From assembly GCF_040054535.1 (NCBI RefSeq), contig NC_090780.1:296501-360500 (forward strand): a stretch of 64,000 nt of DNA, read 5' to 3'. How positions within the stretch are numbered: the first letter of the stretch is position 1; each line of letters opens with the position of its first letter. Source of the stretch: Antennarius striatus. Lineage: Eukaryota > Chordata > Actinopteri > Lophiiformes > Antennariidae. Below the pieces are notes generated by a model. It saw nothing but the letters and a program-made list of their open reading frames with translations. It did no database searches and had not been told where the DNA came from. Below, piece by piece: positions 6,138-58,844 of the stretch. The position numbers and the translations under genes are program-made.

Positions 6138-6450
6138 ATGACTTCCTGTACCTGTGGAATGACTTCCTGTACCTGTGGAATGACTTCATGTACCTGTGGA
6201 ATGACTTCCTGTACCTGTGGAATGACTTCCTGTACCTGTGAAATGACTTCCTGTACCTGTGAAATGACTTCCTGTACCTGTGGAATGACTTCCTGTACCT
6301 GTGGAATGACTTCCTGTACCTGTGGAATGACTTCCTGTACCTGTGGAACGACTTCCTGTACCTGTGGAACGACTTCCTGTACCTGTGGAATGACTTCCTG
6401 TACCTGTGGAATGACTTCCTGTACCTGTGGAATGACTTCCTGTACCTGTC
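6138..6450. repeat. 21-bp minisatellite, about 15 copies
   Basis: Each unit contains gacttcctgtacctgtgg; variants are gaatg/gaacg and ctgtgg/ctgtga. Because 21 is a multiple of 3, reading frames stay open on both strands (MTSCTCG repeats on plus, QVQEVIP repeats on minus). No gene context supports translation. Confidence 0.95.
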
Positions 6451-13679: not shown

Positions 13680-14135
13680 TTATAACAGAATGAGTGTCCC
13701 GTTTCTTTGAGGGGGGGAGGGCAGACTGCTGAGTCCTGTCCTGATGAGTTGTCTCTTCTGTGTTGATCCATGCTCCTGTGTAGTGGTTGTTTGGTTACCC
13801 CCATTAGACATCTGAGCATCCCTCGTTGCATTTAACTGCATACACCAGATTGCTCTTCTGACTGTGGTGGGGGGTATTTTTGGTGGTGTGGGGTCTTTTG
13901 GGTGGACCAGTATTTGTTGGAGGGTGTTGCCCGGCTTAAAATACACAGGAACCTGGTGTTTGTTGAAGATCCTCCTCATCGTCTTAGACACTCCAGACAC
14001 AAACGGATCACTATACCATTGTTTGTTCTCTTCCGTCCTCACTGGTTGTTCTCCTTTCTGGATCTTGTGTGGGCTTTCACGAAGGTCCAGTCAGGATATC
14101 CACAGGTTTTCAGTGCCCCTTTCAGGTGTTGGTGT
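13680..14135 (-). mobile_element. Penelope-like retroelement fragment
   Basis: The minus-strand frame reads FKPGNTLQQILVHPKDPTPP and then AIWCMQLN, matching the linker and GIY-YIG nuclease start of Penelope-like elements. The same block (VHPKDPTPHSQKRHP) occurs in the larger copy near 52300. The frame is degraded after about 13800. Confidence 0.6.
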
Positions 14136-14149
14136 TCTTTCACCTGGTC

Positions 14150-14875
14150 TGGCGTACTGGTTTGTACCCCAGCTGAACCAGCTCCAGCTCAACGTCTCCA
14201 AGACCAAGCAGATGGTGCTGGATTTCCGGCAGGCACCTCCCTCTCCACAGCCAGTGATCATGGAGGGCAGTGAGGTGGGGGTGGTAGAAACTATCAGTAC
14301 CTGGGACTGCAGCTAGACAGCAGACTGGACTGGTCACTCAACTGGGACTGTGTACAAGAAGGGGCAGAGCAGGATGTACTTCCTGAGGAGGCTGGCCTCC
14401 TTCAACATCTGTCCTAAGCTCCTTCTCATGTTCTATCAGTCCGTAGTCTCCAGTGTGCTGTCATACGCCATTGTGTGTTGGGGTGGGGGGGCCAGGAAAA
14501 GAGATATGGACCGTCTGAACAGACTCATCCGCAGAGCGGGCTCAGTGGTCGGGCTGAGCCTGGACTCTGTGGAGACAGTTCTGGGGAGCAGGACCATGTC
14601 TAAAGTTAAGGCTATCATGAACAACACCAGCCCCCCCTACACACCACCTTCTCCCAGCAGAGAAGCACCTTCAGCGACAGACTGCTGTCACACAGCGCCT
14701 CCACAGAGAGGCTGCTACAGTGTAGTGGGGCCAAGGTGTTGTGATTTTTACAGTGACATTGGGACGATTTCGCCTGTAAGTCACGAGTCCTACAGTGTGA
14801 GAAGGACGTACCCCCCAGGTGGCCTCCTGCTGTCTGTCAGTTCATTTCATCCATTTTATACTCTTTGTACTTCTG
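14150..14875 (+). mobile_element. L2-type LINE fragment: reverse transcriptase C-terminus
   Basis: Broken frames give LNQLQLNVSKTKQMVLDFRQ, then MYFLRRLASFNICPKLLLMF, CWGGGARKRDMDRLNRLIRR and VVGLSLDSVETVLGSRTMSK. The same protein blocks occur in the LINE copies at 42488 and (minus) 55660-57245. The fragment is 5'-truncated at about 14150, right after the Penelope-like fragment, and frameshifted near 14300. Its 3' end is found only at 19926-20047, beyond the satellite array. Confidence 0.8.
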
Positions 14876-15580
14876 TTAGGTAGTATATGTTCCGTTAGGT
14901 AGTATATGTCCTGTTAGTGTAGTATATGTTCTGTTAGGTAGTATATGTTCTGTTAGGTAGTATATGTTCTGTTAGTGTAGTATATGTTCTGTTAGGTAGT
15001 ATATGTTCCGTTAGGTAGTATATGTTCTGTTAGGTAGTATATGTTCTGTTAGTGTAGTATATGTTCTGTTAGGTAGTATATGTTCTGTTAGGTAGTATAT
15101 GTTCCGTTAGGTAGTATATGTTCCGTTAGTGTAGTATATGTCCTGTTAGTGTAGTATATGTTCTGTTAGGTAGTAGATGTTCTGTTAGTGTAGTATATGT
15201 TCTGTTAGGTAGTATATGTTCTGTTAGGTAGTATATGTTCCGTTAGTGTAGTATATGTCCTGTTAGTGTAGTATATGTTCTGTTAGGTAGTATATGTTCT
15301 GTTAGTGTAGTATATGTTCTGTTAGGTAGTATATGTTCCGTTAGGTAGTATATGTTCCGTTAGTGTAGTATATGTCCTGTTAGTGTAGTATATGTCCTGT
15401 TAGTGTAGTATATGTTCTGGTAGTGTAGTATATGTCCTGTTAGTGTAGTATATGTCCTGTTAGTGTAGTATATGTCCTGTTAGTGTAGTATATGTCCTGT
15501 TAGTGTAGTATATGTTCTGTTAGGTAGTATATGTTCTGTTAGTGTAGTATATGTTCTGTTAGGTAGTAGTTAGGTAGTAG

Positions 15581-16017
15581 TTGGGGCGGCAGTGGCTCAG
15601 CGGTAGAGCAGAGGTCTTGAAGACAGATCGCCCAGCCATCAGTGGATCGATTCCCGCTCCCGCCAGAACATCTCCTGAGTGTGAGCTGACGGTGGGAGGC
15701 GTCAGCTCACCTCCCGGCCACTGCCGAGGCGCCCTTGAGCAAGGCGCTGTCCCCCTTACAAGCTGTTCTATTGGGGCGCACTCCAGGAAGCTGCTGCCCG
15801 TCACTCTGCCTCCCGATGTACAGCTTGATGTTGTGTTTGTATACTAACTGCATGATTACAGGCCCCTTTGTGTGCTGTGGTTGTTTCAGGGGCCTGTACA
15901 TACACAGTGTGTGTGAAAAACTAACACAAAAAATGTAACAAATGTACACCTGAGTGACAAATGTAATTTCCCCTAGGGGATCAATAAAGTGTATCTTCTT
16001 CTTCTTCTTCTTCTTCT
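15581..16017 (+). mobile_element. tRNA-derived SINE, copy 1
   Basis: The head starts ggggcggcagtggctcagcg with an A-box-like tggctcagcggtagagc and a B-box-like ggatcgattcccgc. The tail is cccctaggggatcaataaag followed by (CTT)n. About 437 bp. It is a retroposon, not a functional tRNA: the head does not close into a normal tRNA end and is fused to a long unrelated body. Confidence 0.85.
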
Positions 16018-17521
16018 AGTATATGTTGTGTTAGTGTAGTATATGTTGTGTTAGTGTAGTATATGTTCTGTTAGGTAGTATATGTTCCGTTAGGTAGTAT
16101 ATGTTCTGTTAGTGTACTATATGTTCTGTTAGTGTAGTATATGTTCTGTTAGTGTAGTATATGTTCCATTAGTGTAGTATATGTCCTGTTAGTGTAGTAT
16201 ATGTCCTGTTAGTGTAGTATATGTCCTGTTAGTGTAGTATATGTTCTGTTAGGTAGTATATGTTCTGTTAGGTAGTATATGTTCTGTTAGTGTAGTATAT
16301 GTTCTGTTAGGTAGTATATGTTCCGTTAGGTAGTATATGTTCTGTTAGGTAGTATATGTTCTGTTAGTGTAGTATATGTTCTGTTAGGTAGTATATGTTC
16401 TGTTAGGTAGTATATGTTCCGTTAGGTAGTATATGTTCCGTTAGTGTAGTATATGTCCTGTTAGTGTAGTATATGTTCTGTTAGGTAGTATATGTTCCGT
16501 TAGTGTAGTATATGTCCTGTTAGTGTAGTATATGTTCTGTTAGGTAGTATATGTTCTGTTAGTGTAGTATATGTTCTGTTAGGTAGTATATGTTCCGTTA
16601 GGTAGTATATGTTCTGTTAGTGTAGTATATGTCCTGTTAGTGTAGTATATGTCCTGTTAGTGTAGTATATGTTCTGGTAGTGTAGTATATGTTCTGTTAG
16701 GTAGTAGATGTTCTGTTAGTGTAGTATATGTTCTGTTAGGTAGTATATGTTCTGTTAGGTAGTATATGTTCCGTTAGTGTAGTATATGTCCTGTTAGTGT
16801 AGTATATGTTCTGTTAGGTAGTATATGTTCTGTTAGTGTAGTATATGTTCCGTTAGGTAGTATATGTTCTGTTAGTGTAGTATATGTCCTGTTAGTGTAG
16901 TATATGTCCTGTTAGTGTAGTATATGTTCTGTTGGGTAGTATATGTTCCGTTAGGTAGTATATGTTCCGTTAGTGTAGTATATGTCCTGTTAGTGTAGTA
17001 TATGTTCTGTTAGGTAGTAGATGTTCTGTTAGGTAGTATATGTTCCGTTAGGTAGTATATGTTCCGTTAGTGTAGTATATGTCCTGTTAGTGTAGTATAT
17101 GTTCTGTTAGGTAGTAGATGTTCTGTTAGTGTAGTATATGTTCTGTTAGGTAGTATATGTTCTGTTAGGTAGTATATGTTCCGTTAGTGTAGTATATGTC
17201 CTGTTAGTGTAGTATATGTTCTGTTAGGTAGTATATGTTCTGTTAGTGTAGTATATGTTCTGTTAGGTAGTATATGTTCCGTTAGGTAGTATATGTTCCG
17301 TTAGTGTAGTATATGTCCTGTTAGTGTAGTATATGTCCTGTTAGTGTAGTATATGTTCTGGTAGTGTAGTATATGTCCTGTTAGTGTAGTATATGTCCTG
17401 TTAGTGTAGTATATGTCCTGTTAGTGTAGTATATGTCCTGTTAGTGTAGTATATGTTCTGTTAGGTAGTATATGTTCTGTTAGTGTAGTATATGTTCTGT
17501 TAGGTAGTAGTTAGGTAGTAG

Positions 17522-17958
17522 TTGGGGCGGCAGTGGCTCAGCGGTAGAGCAGAGGTCTTGAAGACAGATCGCCCAGCCATCAGTGGATCGATTCCCGCTC
17601 CCGCCAGAACATCTCCTGAGTGTGAGCTGACGGTGGGAGGCGTCAGCTCACCTCCCGGCCACTGCCGAGGCGCCCTTGAGCAAGGCGCTGTCCCCCTTAC
17701 AAGCTGTTCTATTGGGGCGCACTCCAGGAAGCTGCTGCCCGTCACTCTGCCTCCCGATGTACAGCTTGATGTTGTGTTTGTATACTAACTGCATGATTAC
17801 AGGCCCCTTTGTGTGCTGTGGTTGTTTCAGGGGCCTGTACATACACAGTGTGTGTGAAAAACTAACACAAAAAATGTAACAAATGTACACCTGAGTGACA
17901 AATGTAATTTCCCCTAGGGGATCAATAAAGTGTATCTTCTTCTTCTTCTTCTTCTTCT
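17522..17958 (+). mobile_element. tRNA-derived SINE, copy 2 (duplicate)
   Basis: Appears identical to the copy at 15581 throughout, with the same flanking array units. It was therefore copied as part of the 1941-bp duplication rather than by a second insertion. Confidence 0.85.
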
Positions 17959-19925
17959 AGTATATGTTGTGTTAGTGTAGTATATGTTGTGTTAGTGTAG
18001 TATATGTTCTGTTAGGTAGTATATGTTCCGTTAGGTAGTATATGTTCTGTTAGTGTACTATATGTTCTGTTAGTGTAGTATATGTTCTGTTAGTGTAGTA
18101 TATGTTCCATTAGTGTAGTATATGTCCTGTTAGTGTAGTATATGTCCTGTTAGTGTAGTATATGTCCTGTTAGTGTAGTATATGTTCTGTTAGGTAGTAT
18201 ATGTTCTGTTAGGTAGTATATGTTCTGTTAGTGTAGTATATGTTCTGTTAGGTAGTATATGTTCCGTTAGGTAGTATATGTTCTGTTAGGTAGTATATGT
18301 TCTGTTAGTGTAGTATATGTTCTGTTAGGTAGTATATGTTCTGTTAGGTAGTATATGTTCCGTTAGGTAGTATATGTTCCGTTAGTGTAGTATATGTCCT
18401 GTTAGTGTAGTATATGTTCTGTTAGGTAGTATATGTTCCGTTAGTGTAGTATATGTCCTGTTAGTGTAGTATATGTTCTGTTAGGTAGTATATGTTCTGT
18501 TAGTGTAGTATATGTTCTGTTAGGTAGTATATGTTCCGTTAGGTAGTATATGTTCTGTTAGTGTAGTATATGTCCTGTTAGTGTAGTATATGTCCTGTTA
18601 GTGTAGTATATGTTCTGGTAGTGTAGTATATGTTCTGTTAGGTAGTAGATGTTCTGTTAGTGTAGTATATGTTCTGTTAGGTAGTATATGTTCTGTTAGG
18701 TAGTATATGTTCCGTTAGTGTAGTATATGTCCTGTTAGTGTAGTATATGTTCTGTTAGGTAGTATATGTTCTGTTAGTGTAGTATATGTTCCGTTAGGTA
18801 GTATATGTTCTGTTAGTGTAGTATATGTCCTGTTAGTGTAGTATATGTCCTGTTAGTGTAGTATATGTTCTGTTGGGTAGTATATGTTCCGTTAGGTAGT
18901 ATATGTTCCGTTAGGTAGTATATGTTGTGTTAGTGTAGTATATGTTCTGTTAGTGTAGTATATGTTCTGTTGGGTAGTATATGTTCTGTTGGGTAGTATA
19001 TGTTCCGTTAGGTAGTATATGTTGTGTTAGTGTAGTATATGTTCTGTTAGGTAGTATATGTCCTGTTAGTGTAGTATATGTTCTGTTAGGTAGTATATGT
19101 CCTGTTAGTGTAGTATATGTTCTGTTAGTGTAGTATATGTTCTGTTAGGTAGTATATGTCCTGTTTGTGTAGTATATGTCCTGGTATTGTAGTATATGTT
19201 CTGTTAGTGTAGTATATGTCCTGTTAGTGTAGTATATGTTCTGTTAGGTAGTATATGTCCTGTTAGTGTAGTATATGTTCTGTTAGTGTAGTATATGTTC
19301 TGTTAGTGTAGTATATGTTCTGTTAGGTAGTATATGTCCTGTTAGTGTAGTATATGTCCTGGTATTGTAGTATATGTTCTGTTAGTGTAGTATATGTCCT
19401 GTTAGTGTAGTATATGTTCTGTTAGGTAGTATATGTCCTGTTAGTGTAGTATATGTTCTGTTAGTGTAGTATATGTTCTGTTAGGTAGTGTATGTCCTGT
19501 TAGTGTAGTATATGTCCTGGTATTGTAGTATATGTTCTGTTAGTGTAGTATATGTCCTGTTATTGTAGTATATGTTCTGTTATTGTAGTATATGTTCTGT
19601 TAGTGTAGTATATGTCCTGTTATTGTAGTATATGTTCTGTTATTGTAGTATATGTTCTGTTATTGTAGTATATGTTCTGTTAGTGTAGTATATGTTCTGT
19701 TATTGTAGTATATGTTCTGTTATTGTAGTATATGTTCTGTTAGTGTAGTATATGTCCTGTTATTGTAGTATATGTTCTGTTATTGTAGTATATGTTCTGT
19801 TATTGTAGTATATGTTCTGTTATTGTAGTATATGTTCTGTTAGTGTAGTATATGTCCTGTTATTGTAGTATATGTTCTGTTAGTGTAGTATATGTTCTGT
19901 TATTGTAGTACATGTCTTGTGGTCT

Positions 19926-20047
19926 GTTCTGCCTGTGTTTCTTTTAACTCCTGGTGTTTAATATCTAGATTTATGTACATTTCATGTCTGAGCAGTGACT
20001 ATTTGTAATTTCCTCTGTGATTAATAAAGTATCCTTCCTTCTTTCTA
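19926..20047 (+). mobile_element. 3' end of the L2-type LINE
   Basis: ttctcctggtg-like text (ctcctggtgtttaatatcta), then tgtctgagcagtgactattt and gattaataaagtatccttcc. This is the same 3' terminal text as the LINE copies ending at 43347 and, inverted, at 55320. It closes the element that begins at 14150. Confidence 0.8.
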
Positions 20048-20374: not shown

Positions 20375-25869
<5,495 letters not shown>

Positions 25870-42485: not shown

Positions 42486-43476
<991 letters not shown>

Positions 43477-55305: not shown

Positions 55306-55862
55306 AGATAGATAGATCGATAGACAGATACTTTATTAATCCCGGAGGAAATTGTATATATCCACTGCTCAGGCATTACATAACGAATAATACTGGATAA
55401 ACACCAGGAGAAAAAGAAACACTGACATCACAGGACATACCACAAGACATACACTACACTAACAGACACATGCAGCAATAACAGGACTTATATACTAAAC
55501 TATAACTAAAATATAAACAGTATAAAATTAAAATATAAACAGTATAAAATTTAAAAAATATAACAGTATTAAATTAAAATATAAACAGTATAAAAGTAAA
55601 ATATAAACGGTATAAAATTGAATTAAAATATAAAACAGTACAAAATTAAATTAAATCCATTCAACCCCGTGCTGACCTCGCCACCTCACCCCCGCTCCTC
55701 CTGAGCGAGTCATTGTACCCCCTGGAGGCACAGGGCACGAAGGAGGACCTCAGCCTCTCTGTGGAGGCGCTGTGTGACAGAAGTCTGCCGCTGAAGGTGC
55801 TCCTCTGCTGGGAGAAGGTGGTGTGTAGGGGGTGGCTGGTGTTGTTAATGATAGCCTTAACT

Positions 55863-57245
55863 TTAGACATGGTCCTGCTCTCCAGAAGCATATCCACAGA
55901 GTCCAGGCTCAGCCCGACCACTGAGCCCGCTCTGCGGATGAGTCTGTTCAGACGGTCCATATCTCTTTTCATGGCCCCCCCACCCCAACACACAATGGCG
56001 TATGACTACGGACTGATAGAACATGAGAAGGAGCTTAGGACAGATGTTGAAGGAGGCCAGCCTCCTCAGGAAGTACATCCTGCTCTGCCCCTTGTAAACA
56101 CAGTTCGAGTTGTGTAACCAGTCAAGTCTGCTGTCTAGCTGCAGTCCCAGGTACTTATAGTTTTCTACCACCTCCACCTCACTGCCCTCCATGATCACTG
56201 ACTGTGGAGAGGGAGGTGCCCGCCGTAACTCCAGCACCATCTCCTTTGTCTTGGAGACATTGAGCTGGAGCTGGTTCTGTTGGCACCACTCCACGAAGTC
56301 AGCCACCAATGCCCTGTACCCCCCCTCATCACCCTCCCGGATACATGCCACTATCACGGTGTCATCGGAGTACTTCTGTATGTGGCATGTATCCGAGTTG
56401 TACTTGAAGTCTGATGTGTAGAGGGTGAAGAGAATGGGGGAGAGAACGGTCCCCTGTGGCGCCCCCGTGCTGCTGGTCACCATAGAAGACAAACAGTCCC
56501 CCATACGGACGTACTGGGGTCTGTCCGTTAGGTAGTCCGTAATCCAGCTCACGAGGTAGGGGTCCACAGCCATGGAGGTCAGTTTATCCTGCAGGAGCCG
56601 GGACTGGATGGTGTTGAAGGCACTTGAAAAGTCAAAGAAGAGCATTCTGACGGCACAGCCCCCGGCGTCCAGGTAGGAGAGTATGCGGTGGAGGAGGTAC
56701 AAGACAGCGTCGTCAACCCCAACCTTGGCCTGATAGGCGAACTGGAGAGGGTCCATCGCACCCTGCACCTGTGGACACATGAGCTCCAGGACCAGTCGCT
56801 CTAGGGTCTTCATTACATGGGAGGTAAGAGCGACCGGTCGGTGGTCGTTGAGCTCAGTAAGGCGTCCTTTCTTGGGTACAGTGACAATGCAGGAGGTCTT
56901 CCACAGTGACGGGACCCACCCCAGCCGCAGACTGAGGTTGAACAATTGTTGCAGGGGGTCCCCTAGTTCCGAAGCACAGGCTCGGAGGAGTCTTGGGGAG
57001 ACCTTATCTGGTCCAGCTGCCTTATAGGGACGGAGCCTCCTCAGCGTTGTCGTCACCAGGTCTGCAGTGATGACGATCTCCGTAGTGGTGAGAGCAGGAG
57101 GTTGTGGCGAGGTTGGAAGTCCAGTAGTTGTGGTGGGGCCGTTGAGCTTCGCAGTTCTTGGAGTGGGCTCGGGAGAAGTGGCAGGGGTGGAAGGAGAGTA
57201 AGCACAGGAGGGAGCATCCACTGATGCTCCCTCCCCAGGGAGCAT
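55863..57245 (-). pseudogene. LINE reverse transcriptase ORF
   Basis: 460 codons open, one frame off from the endonuclease ORF and overlapping it by 224 bp. Domains in order: RRLRPYKAAGPDKVSPRLLR, NDHRPVALTSHVMKTLERLV, FFDFSSAFNTI (catalytic Asp), GAPQGTVLSPILFTLYT, QKYSDDTVIV (YSDD in place of the usual YADD), NYKYLGLQLDSRLDW. The final part is shifted near 55990 and continues in another frame to 55661. Confidence 0.85.
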
Positions 57246-58347
57246 CAGTGGAGCGGTTTGCAGGACCGGAAGAGGCCTGGGATGAGGAGCCGGGAGTGGT
57301 GGGGGAGCTGAACCGATTGAAGAAGCTGTTTAGTTCATTCGCTCGTTCAATATTCCCCTCCACAGTGCTGCGCCCTTTCCCATGTCCGGTGATGATTCTC
57401 ATCCCATGCCAGATCTCCCGCACCTGGTTGCGCCTCAGCTGCCTCCCCAGCTTCCTCCTGTACGCCTCCTTGGCTTCCCTCAAGCAGAGTCTCACTTCCT
57501 GCTGGGCCTTCCTCATCTCCTCCTCGTTCTTGCTCCTGAACGCCCGCTTCTTCCTGTTCAGGACAGCCTTGACTTCCTTGGTTACCCATGGTTTGTTGTT
57601 GGGGTAACACCTGATTGTCCTGACAGGGGCCACGGTGTCCACACAGAAGTTCATGTAGTCTGTAAAACACTGAGCTGCCCCCTCAATGTCCTCCCCATGT
57701 GAGCCCACAATAACATCCCAGTCGGTGGTCTGGAAGCAGTCCCTCAGCATCTCCTCTGCTTCCGGGGACCACTTCCTGACCTGTCGTGTTGTTGCTGGCA
57801 GCCGTTTCACCAGCGGGATGTAGGTGGGCTGTAGGTGCACTAGGTTATGATCTGATTTACCTAGTGGAGGGAGGGGGGTGCCGGTGTATGCCTCCTTAGC
57901 ATTAGTGTAGAACAGATCGATGGTTCTGTTCTTCCGTGTGGGACAGTCTACACACTGGACCATTGTGGGGAGAGATGAGTCCAAGGTGACGTGATTAAAG
58001 TCACCAGTGATAATGACGAGCGCCTCCGGGTGCCGGGTCCGAAGAGCAGAGGTGGTCCCACAGATGGTTTCTCGTGCCGTCTCAGGGTCCGCCCGTGGAG
58101 GGATGTAGACGGCGAGGACGATGACGTGTGAGAATTCACGCGCCAGGTAGTAGGGTCTGATGCTAACAGCTGTTAGCTCCTGATCGCGGTTACACAGTGT
58201 TGATTTCACCGTCACATGTTCCGGATGGCACCATCTATCGTTGGTATAGATGATTAATCCACCTCCTTTCCTCTTACCGGCGGTGTTCGTGTCCCGGTCC
58301 CCTCGTACGGAGGAGAAGCCGGTTAGTCTGACGTTAGCGTCTGGCAC
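57022..58347 (-). pseudogene. LINE endonuclease and linker ORF
   Basis: 441 codons open. Apurinic/apyrimidinic-type endonuclease C-terminal two thirds: GGGLIIYTNDRWCHPEHVTV, EALVIITGDFNHV, LGKSDHNLVHL with the catalytic Ser-Asp-His. Then the linker (CYPNNKPWVTKEVKAVLNRK, EAKEAYRRKLGRQLRRNQVR). The N-terminal part of the endonuclease (MGNVNSLPNKLDELT, about 58480-58440) is cut off by a stop and the 16-bp duplication. Confidence 0.85.
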
Positions 58348-58844
58348 GTCGCCAGTTAGCCACGTCGCCAGTTAGCCACGTCTCTGAGAACACCAACAAG
58401 CTGGTCTCCCGCTAGCACTGTTCAGTCCTGCACAGCACCGTCAGTTCGTCCAACTTGTTGGGTAGCGAGTTCACGTTCCCCATGATGACGGAGGGGACGG
58501 AGGGCTTGACTCTCCTCCGGTTAGTGGCTCTAGCCGTTAGTCTAGTCCTTTCAACGCGACCCGCTCAGCATCCGCGATATCTCCGTCTGAGCTCAGCGGG
58601 GATGAGATCGCGTGTTGCTGGGTCTCCTTTGACCCTCATGGACATCAAGTCCTCCCTGGAGTACACTAGCATATTAATATACATTATCTAAATTTACGTT
58701 AAAAAAATACACATGCAGAAACAGAAAAAAACGCAAAATTATGCATAACAAACTCGCTCTGAGCAAAGGAAACTGCAGCTTGCTCGCGCATGCGCAGATG
58801 AATTAACCCTATATATAATAAGCCCTATACAAATAAAGATTGAT

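What the first reader, a model, noticed from the sequence alone, without database searches (positions are those of the whole stretch)
14150..20047. A roughly 5-kb satellite grew inside the 3' UTR of a LINE copy
The protein end of an L2-type LINE lies at 14150-14875 and its own 3' terminus at 19926-20047. Everything between is an array of 19/20-bp units plus SINEs. In two other copies of the LINE in this window (43160-43347 and, inverted, 55320-55500) the same place holds only about one or two unit-like stretches (tagtatatgtcctgttagtg, gttagtgtagtg). The array therefore seems to have arisen by local expansion of LINE 3' UTR sequence, a direct path from mobile element to satellite DNA.
Basis: seen in the sequence. 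Interest (0 to 1): 0.75.

Follow-up and report, generated by a model that had tools for sequence, protein, structure and literature searches.

The report
Tandem array grown from LINE 3' UTR
A 5-kb block of 20-base repeats grew out of a short repeat already present in the tail of a common jumping gene, and other copies of that jumping gene show the same growth at earlier stages.

Summary
Observation confirmed, coordinates corrected. The array (14871-19915; 209 whole 19/20-bp units, two SINEs) lies inside one LINE 3' UTR: its left (14715-14870) and right (19905-20037) flanks are the two sides of the same UTR in other copies in this genome, with 1-4 units between them by script. A two-unit pattern matches 119 times in 548 Mb (reversed control 0): 79 in the window, 35 in fetched LINE loci, 5 unexamined. 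All 9 listed outside places have LINE UTR flank on at least one side, with 2-17 units. Units are more alike within loci than between; the 19-bp variant dimer occurs only here (33 of 33). So the array grew locally, and other copies expanded independently. A young-family SINE landed in it and was copied in a 1,941-bp duplication.

Correction: the ORF piece (14169-14714) is 95-99% like LINE copies without this UTR type, so the copy is a mosaic. This is one 5-kb minisatellite, not a dispersed satellite. Tandem repeats born from 3' UTRs of mobile elements are known; this is a new, well-graded member.

The parts
14169..14714 (+). C-terminal RT-ORF fragment of the LINE
   Evidence: 95-97% to 39 other places among 40 scored of 1957 candidates; 94.9-98.6% over its last 285 bp to 20 of 20 fetched copies that lack the old-type left flank; frame 14320-14880 matches PF09004
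14715..14870 (+). Left part of an old-type LINE 3' UTR, left flank of the array
   Evidence: 69-74% full-length matches elsewhere; in fetched copies it is followed by units and the LINE tail
14871..19915 (+). Tandem array of 20-bp (129) and 19-bp (80) units
   Evidence: genome patterns
15583..16018 (+). SINE copy 1 inside the array
17524..17959 (+). SINE copy 2, identical to copy 1, carried by the 1,941-bp duplication
15080..16973 (+). First copy of the exact 1,894-bp duplicated segment
   Evidence: identical to 17021-18914
17021..18914 (+). Second copy of the exact duplicated segment
19905..20047 (+). Right part of the same old-type LINE 3' UTR and LINE 3' terminus
43072..43361 (+). Window LINE copy: 22-bp AT-rich repeats plus 2-3 unexpanded unit-like stretches
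55327..55650 (-). Window LINE copy (inverted): 22-bp AT-rich repeats plus unexpanded unit-like stretches

Best explanation
A LINE with a reverse-transcriptase domain (L2/CR1-like; clade name recalled) carries in its 3' UTR a degenerate seed of two to three 20-bp repeats. Shown: the unselected copies examined keep 0-2 script-counted units. Shown: some other copies hold 2-17 units with locus-specific variants, and the window copy holds 209. Inferred order: an old LINE inserted; unequal exchange or replication slippage lengthened the seed; a 19-bp variant arose inside the array and spread through its 5' and middle part; a SINE of a young family inserted; a 1,941-bp block with the SINE was duplicated very recently. 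The adjoining ORF piece comes from, or was overwritten by, a younger LINE (gene conversion or a fusing deletion; not settled). No function is shown; neutral growth is most likely.
For: Both flanks stand on either side of units in L059, L061, L062, L063 and L064, five of seven copies fetched for the left flank (script counts 1, 3, 2, 1, 4). Of the other two, L060 breaks off in the first unit, and L065 has the first 37 bp of the left flank, 2 units and the tail. 20 of 20 further old-type copies have 1-2 units at 6 mismatches or fewer; 48 of 48 earlier LINE ends have 0 (7) or 1 (41) at 5 or fewer. Two-unit pattern: 119 genome matches, reversed control 0; 9 of 9 listed outside places have LINE UTR flank, five on both sides, at E about 5e-11 or better on each side counted. 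Units differ by 2.95 of 20 positions within loci and 4.55 between; 0 of 300 label shuffles as large. 19-bp dimer: 33 of 33 matches in this array, reversed control 0. Exact 1,894-bp duplication with the SINE. 38 other scored SINE copies are 96-99% identical.
Against: Five of 119 pattern matches were not examined, and the listing showed only 100. Four of the 9 outside loci show flank on one side only (L066, L073 tail; L068, L070 left). The window's UTR has no close relative over its whole length (tail best 85%, mostly 76-80%; left flank best 74%, though its first 37 bp reach 95-97% in many places), so no near-identical unexpanded copy is at hand. The baseline copies were found with a query that itself holds 2-3 units, which favours similar counts. 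The shuffle test treats units as independent. ORF and UTR disagree in affinity. Array length and the exact duplication rest on one assembly.
Confidence: 0.9

Rival explanations
1. Capture: a satellite existed first, and LINE copies picked up pieces of it in their 3' UTR and dispersed them.
For: The unit occurs in many LINE copies; this is one of two scenarios weighed for Ogre satellites (PMC7004042, passages seen).
Against: No LINE-free array among the 9 listed outside places. The seed is at the same UTR position in unexpanded copies of two UTR types. The 19-bp dimer is confined to this array (33 of 33).
Confidence: 0.04
2. Not exclusive of the best explanation: two separate LINE insertions, in which a young LINE ORF fragment landed beside an old LINE UTR and a deletion fused them.
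For: The ORF end is 94.9-98.6% to 20 of 20 fetched copies without the old-type left flank and has a near-zero private branch, while the UTR's tail is at best 85% and its left flank at best 74% over full length. The junction at 14714/14715 lacks about 112-118 bp and by eye has a possible GCTG microhomology.
Against: The join is nearly colinear in LINE coordinates. Other old-UTR copies also carry ORFs close to the window's (L064 94.1%, L065 93.2%; L067 95.8%), so mosaics or fast UTR turnover may be general. It concerns the ORF only; the array's flanks remain one UTR.
Confidence: 0.35
3. Assembly artefact: the array, or at least its exact 1.94-kb duplication, was created or lengthened by assembly.
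For: 1,894 bp identical over two copies including the SINE; no reads available.
Against: The array has its own variants, a 13-unit block also repeated outside the large duplication, and a distinct 3' rim; smaller arrays exist on other contigs.
Confidence: 0.1
4. Expansion happened during reverse transcription of the LINE, so each insertion was born with its array.
For: Seed number varies among copies; the 22-bp AT-rich repeat in the same UTR varies from 0 to 8 over 48 LINE ends.
Against: Duplication of a SINE inside the array must be a later DNA event. No other place has the 19-bp dimer.
Confidence: 0.08

Closest known systems
PisTR-A and Lathyrus satellites from Ogre LTR-retrotransposon 3' UTR tandem repeats (Macas 2009, cited in PMC9659126; PMC7004042, passages seen)
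   Same: Short tandem repeats in an element's 3' UTR that occasionally expand to long arrays; stages of expansion seen
   Different: Plant LTR element, expansion mainly in primary constrictions; here a LINE with one 5-kb array and several small ones
Common cetacean satellite (L1 3' end) and chicken HinfI satellite (CR1 3' UTR and partial ORF) (PMC9659126 passages)
   Same: LINE 3'-terminal sequence turned into tandem repeats
   Different: There the passages describe monomers similar to parts of the element; here the seed is an existing 20-bp repeat in the UTR and the array is still flanked by its UTR
Minisatellites inside human transposable elements (PMC3389668; search listing, and the review's table)
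   Same: Tandem repeats within element copies
   Different: Here recurrent at one UTR position of one LINE family, with a copy-number series

Membership tests
Transposable-element-3'UTR-derived tandem repeat | Array unit homologous to a UTR segment of the element | tested here: met
Transposable-element-3'UTR-derived tandem repeat | Array flanked on both sides by that element's UTR | tested here: met
   14715-14870 and 19905-20037 both occur in single short copies L059, L061, L062, L063, L064
Transposable-element-3'UTR-derived tandem repeat | Intermediate copy numbers elsewhere | tested here: met
   2-17 script-counted units in 9 outside loci
Satellite DNA (classical) | Long, abundant arrays at many sites | tested here: not met
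   one 5-kb array; 40 of 119 genome pattern matches lie outside it
Minisatellite | Unit of about 10-100 bp, array up to about 20 kb (size class recalled) | tested here: met
   19/20 bp, 5.0 kb
Minisatellite | Length polymorphism among individuals | not testable with these tools
   no reads or second genome of the species
L2/CR1-type LINE | Reverse-transcriptase domain | tested here: met
   PF00078 E 1.1e-27 in the 55-57 kb copy
L2/CR1-type LINE | Endonuclease domain | tested here: inconclusive
   Exo_endo_phos_2 19.8 bits, cut-off 27.4, in the neighbouring frame 57025-58371
L2/CR1-type LINE | RT tree places it in the L2/CR1 clade | not tested
   clade name is recalled
L2/CR1-type LINE | 3' end running into short microsatellite repeats | tested here: met
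   (TATC)n and variants after the AATAAAGTAT tail in many copies

The most novel reading that the evidence does not exclude
The 3' UTR of this LINE family is a built-in tandem-repeat nursery. It carries two separate seeds (a 20-bp repeat and a 22-bp AT-rich repeat), and its insertions (1,077 first-look candidates for the old UTR type) act as independent trials that grow at different rates. The window locus is the furthest-grown case seen, an incipient satellite with nested duplications and a passenger SINE. If so, array growth as a function of seed purity and place could be measured within one genome.
Probability: 0.4. Interest if true: 0.6.

Novelty: new member of a known kind. Interest (0 to 1): 0.47.

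Why it matters
Satellites derived from mobile elements are mostly inferred from finished arrays. Here one genome holds the unexpanded seed, small independent arrays and a 5-kb array, all at the same position of the same LINE, so the early steps can be ordered and their frequency estimated. The array also ends 460 bp before a putative start codon of pdhb, a central metabolic gene, so length variation there would be worth typing.

Tried and rejected
Rejected: that 14715-14870 is an unrelated insertion flanked by a CTACAGTGT direct repeat (noticed by eye). It is old-type LINE 3' UTR found in other copies. An early shuffle test of that flank against mostly young-type UTRs was weak (best score reached by 1, 13 and 4 of 200 shuffles for three stretches); the genome search supersedes it.

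Rejected: that the tail's divergence from the window copies (about 75%) refutes the finding. It shows another UTR type, not another origin of the array.

Led nowhere: a target-site duplication around 14169 and 20047 (best exact shared word 7 bases, in a T/C-rich stretch). The sequence upstream of 14169 looks like a Penelope-type element (recalled; no Pfam match); its genome search did not complete. Literature: five answered searches; from titles and abstract starts alone none of the listed papers reports this array. Open-licence papers only, so that is no proof of absence.

Full report
WHAT IS THERE. The window lies at C5:296501-360500 of a 548-Mb assembly with 42 contigs. A peptide at about 24.4 kb is pyruvate dehydrogenase E1 beta (E 3e-37 to PDB chains). 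The array spans 14871-19915. Splitting it gives 129 units of 20 bp and 80 of 19 bp, plus two interruptions by one SINE. The commonest units are TTCTGTTAGGTAGTATATG (50), TCCTGTTAGTGTAGTATATG (46) and TTCTGTTAGTGTAGTATATG (39).

IS THE LINE LINK MORE THAN CHANCE. With the array masked, 5,882 80-bp windows (step 20, both strands counted) were scored against the unit. Read by eye, the same place in these copies holds two to three degenerate units.

BOTH FLANKS BELONG TO ONE UTR. LINE coding homology ends at 14714. A genome search with 14712-14872 scored 40 of 92 candidates, itself included; full-length matches are 69-74% identical, and its first 37 bp reach 95-97% in many places. Seven places were fetched. 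Five of the seven (L059, L061, L062, L063, L064) hold this left flank, then units, then the LINE tail seen at 19905-20037. Script counts of units are 1, 3, 2, 1 and 4; by eye, with degenerate ones, about 2-4. L060 breaks off after the start of the first unit. L065 matches only the first 37 bp of the left flank and has 2 units and the tail. So 14715-14870 and 19905-20037 are the two sides of one old-type LINE 3' UTR. The window copy lacks about 112-118 bp that L061, L062, L064 and L065 have between ORF end and this UTR piece.

COPY-NUMBER SERIES. Baseline: 20 further old-type copies, the best-scoring of the 40 places leaving out L062 (the query itself) and L064 (already held, 4 units), have 2 (13) or 1 (7) units at 6 mismatches or fewer. 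The query held 2-3 units, so this sample favours such counts; in two rows (L083, L090) the tail mark was misplaced by the script. Among earlier loci, 48 LINE 3' ends have 0 (7) or 1 (41) unit at 5 mismatches or fewer. A pattern spanning two neighbouring units, with up to 3 mismatches, matches 119 times in the genome; read backwards it matches 0 times. Of these, 79 are in the window, 35 in L061, L063, L064 and L066-L074, and 5 were not examined; 100 of the 119 were listed. All 9 places listed outside the window were fetched. All 9 show LINE UTR sequence on at least one side: both sides in L067, L069, L071, L072 and L074; tail only in L066 and L073; left only in L068 and L070. Script counts of units: L066 17, L070 9 (more, degenerate, by eye), L068 7, L073 7, L074 7, L071 5, L067 3, L072 3, L069 2. 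L061, L063 and L064 were fetched for their LINE flank, so they are not independent evidence for the flank.

LOCAL, INDEPENDENT GROWTH. For the 8 loci with at least 4 script-counted units (76 units; the window sampled down to 20), units differ by 2.95 positions within loci and 4.55 between; 0 of 300 label shuffles reached the difference (the shuffles treat units as independent). A 19-bp dimer pattern matches 33 times in the genome, all 33 in this array, with reversed control 0. The 19-bp form was most simply born here and has not spread.

RECENT HISTORY. Bases 15080-16973 equal 17021-18914 exactly (1,894 bp, offset 1,941), SINE included. Older blocks repeat too: a 13-unit block at 14909 recurs at 16224, and again at 18165 through the large duplication. 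The last bin of the array (from 19655) has only 20-bp units and 9 of the 13 units with TTATTG. The SINE belongs to a young family: 38 other scored copies at 96-99% among 3,723 candidates. Its tail resembles the LINE tails: scores 40, 28 and 31 against the copies at 14, 55 and 43 kb, with maxima of 27, 26 and 25 in 500 shuffles each. That the LINE mobilised it is inference.

THE MOSAIC. Over its last 285 bp the ORF piece is 94.9-98.6% to 20 of 20 fetched copies (L009-L028), none of which matches the old-type left flank, and it has a near-zero private branch on the ORF tree. Some of these 20 (for example L009, L020, L022) have lost most of their UTR. Among copies with old-type UTR the ORF piece is 79.8% (L061), 80.6% (L062), 93.2% (L065), 94.1% (L064) and 95.8% (L067). 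The window's own UTR is at best 85% (tail, L030) or 74% over its full length (left flank) to anything scored. The ORF therefore looks younger than the UTR. Gene conversion, a fusing deletion or a recombinant LINE would all do; I cannot choose. None of these touches the array's origin, since both array flanks are UTR.

THE SAME UTR HAS A SECOND SEED. Many copies carry a 22-bp AT-rich repeat just before the 20-bp seed, with 0 to 8 copies over 48 ends.

WHAT IS KNOWN. A review lists 3' UTRs and 3' ends of Ogre, HeT-A, L1 and CR1 as sources of satellites (PMC9659126, passages seen). PMC7004042 shows stages of Ogre 3' UTR array growth and weighs expansion against capture (passages seen). The present case is of that kind in a LINE. 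It does not meet the usual meaning of satellite DNA (many long arrays); it is a minisatellite-sized, possibly incipient satellite.

FUNCTION. None is shown. The array ends 460 bp before a putative start codon at 20375, taken as that of pdhb because the pyruvate dehydrogenase E1 beta peptide follows on the same strand (the exon link is inferred). The most likely reading is neutral growth by unequal exchange; an effect on pdhb is possible and untested.

Noticed in passing
window 6138-6449: A 21-bp tandem array (14.9 copies) on the minus strand continues an open frame that resembles the C-terminal end of the 55-kb LINE protein (14 of 31 identical), so another LINE end seems to have bred an in-frame repeat (RYRKSFH).
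   Followed up: partly
window 43072-43164 and 55507-55650: A 22-bp AT-rich tandem repeat sits in the LINE 3' UTR and varies from 0 to 8 copies over 48 LINE ends.
   Followed up: partly
G000 C6:20368987-20378643: Five copies of the same SINE lie in one orientation, three of them about 1.6 kb apart, which suggests another tandem block carrying this SINE.
   Followed up: no
L073, first 340 bases of the minus strand: An expanded unit array is joined head-on to an inverted young-type LINE end, possibly a 5' inversion or a nested insertion.
   Followed up: no
L066, last 200 bases: A second, unrelated tandem repeat of about 53 bp (by eye) lies downstream of the 17-unit array.
   Followed up: no
window 13680-14168: Minus-strand frame resembling a Penelope-type element (recalled; no Pfam match) directly before the LINE piece.
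   Followed up: partly
window 23028-23609: A clean 20-bp tandem array (29 copies) of different sequence, not seen to lie in a LINE, a reminder that minisatellites may be common here outside LINEs too.
   Followed up: no
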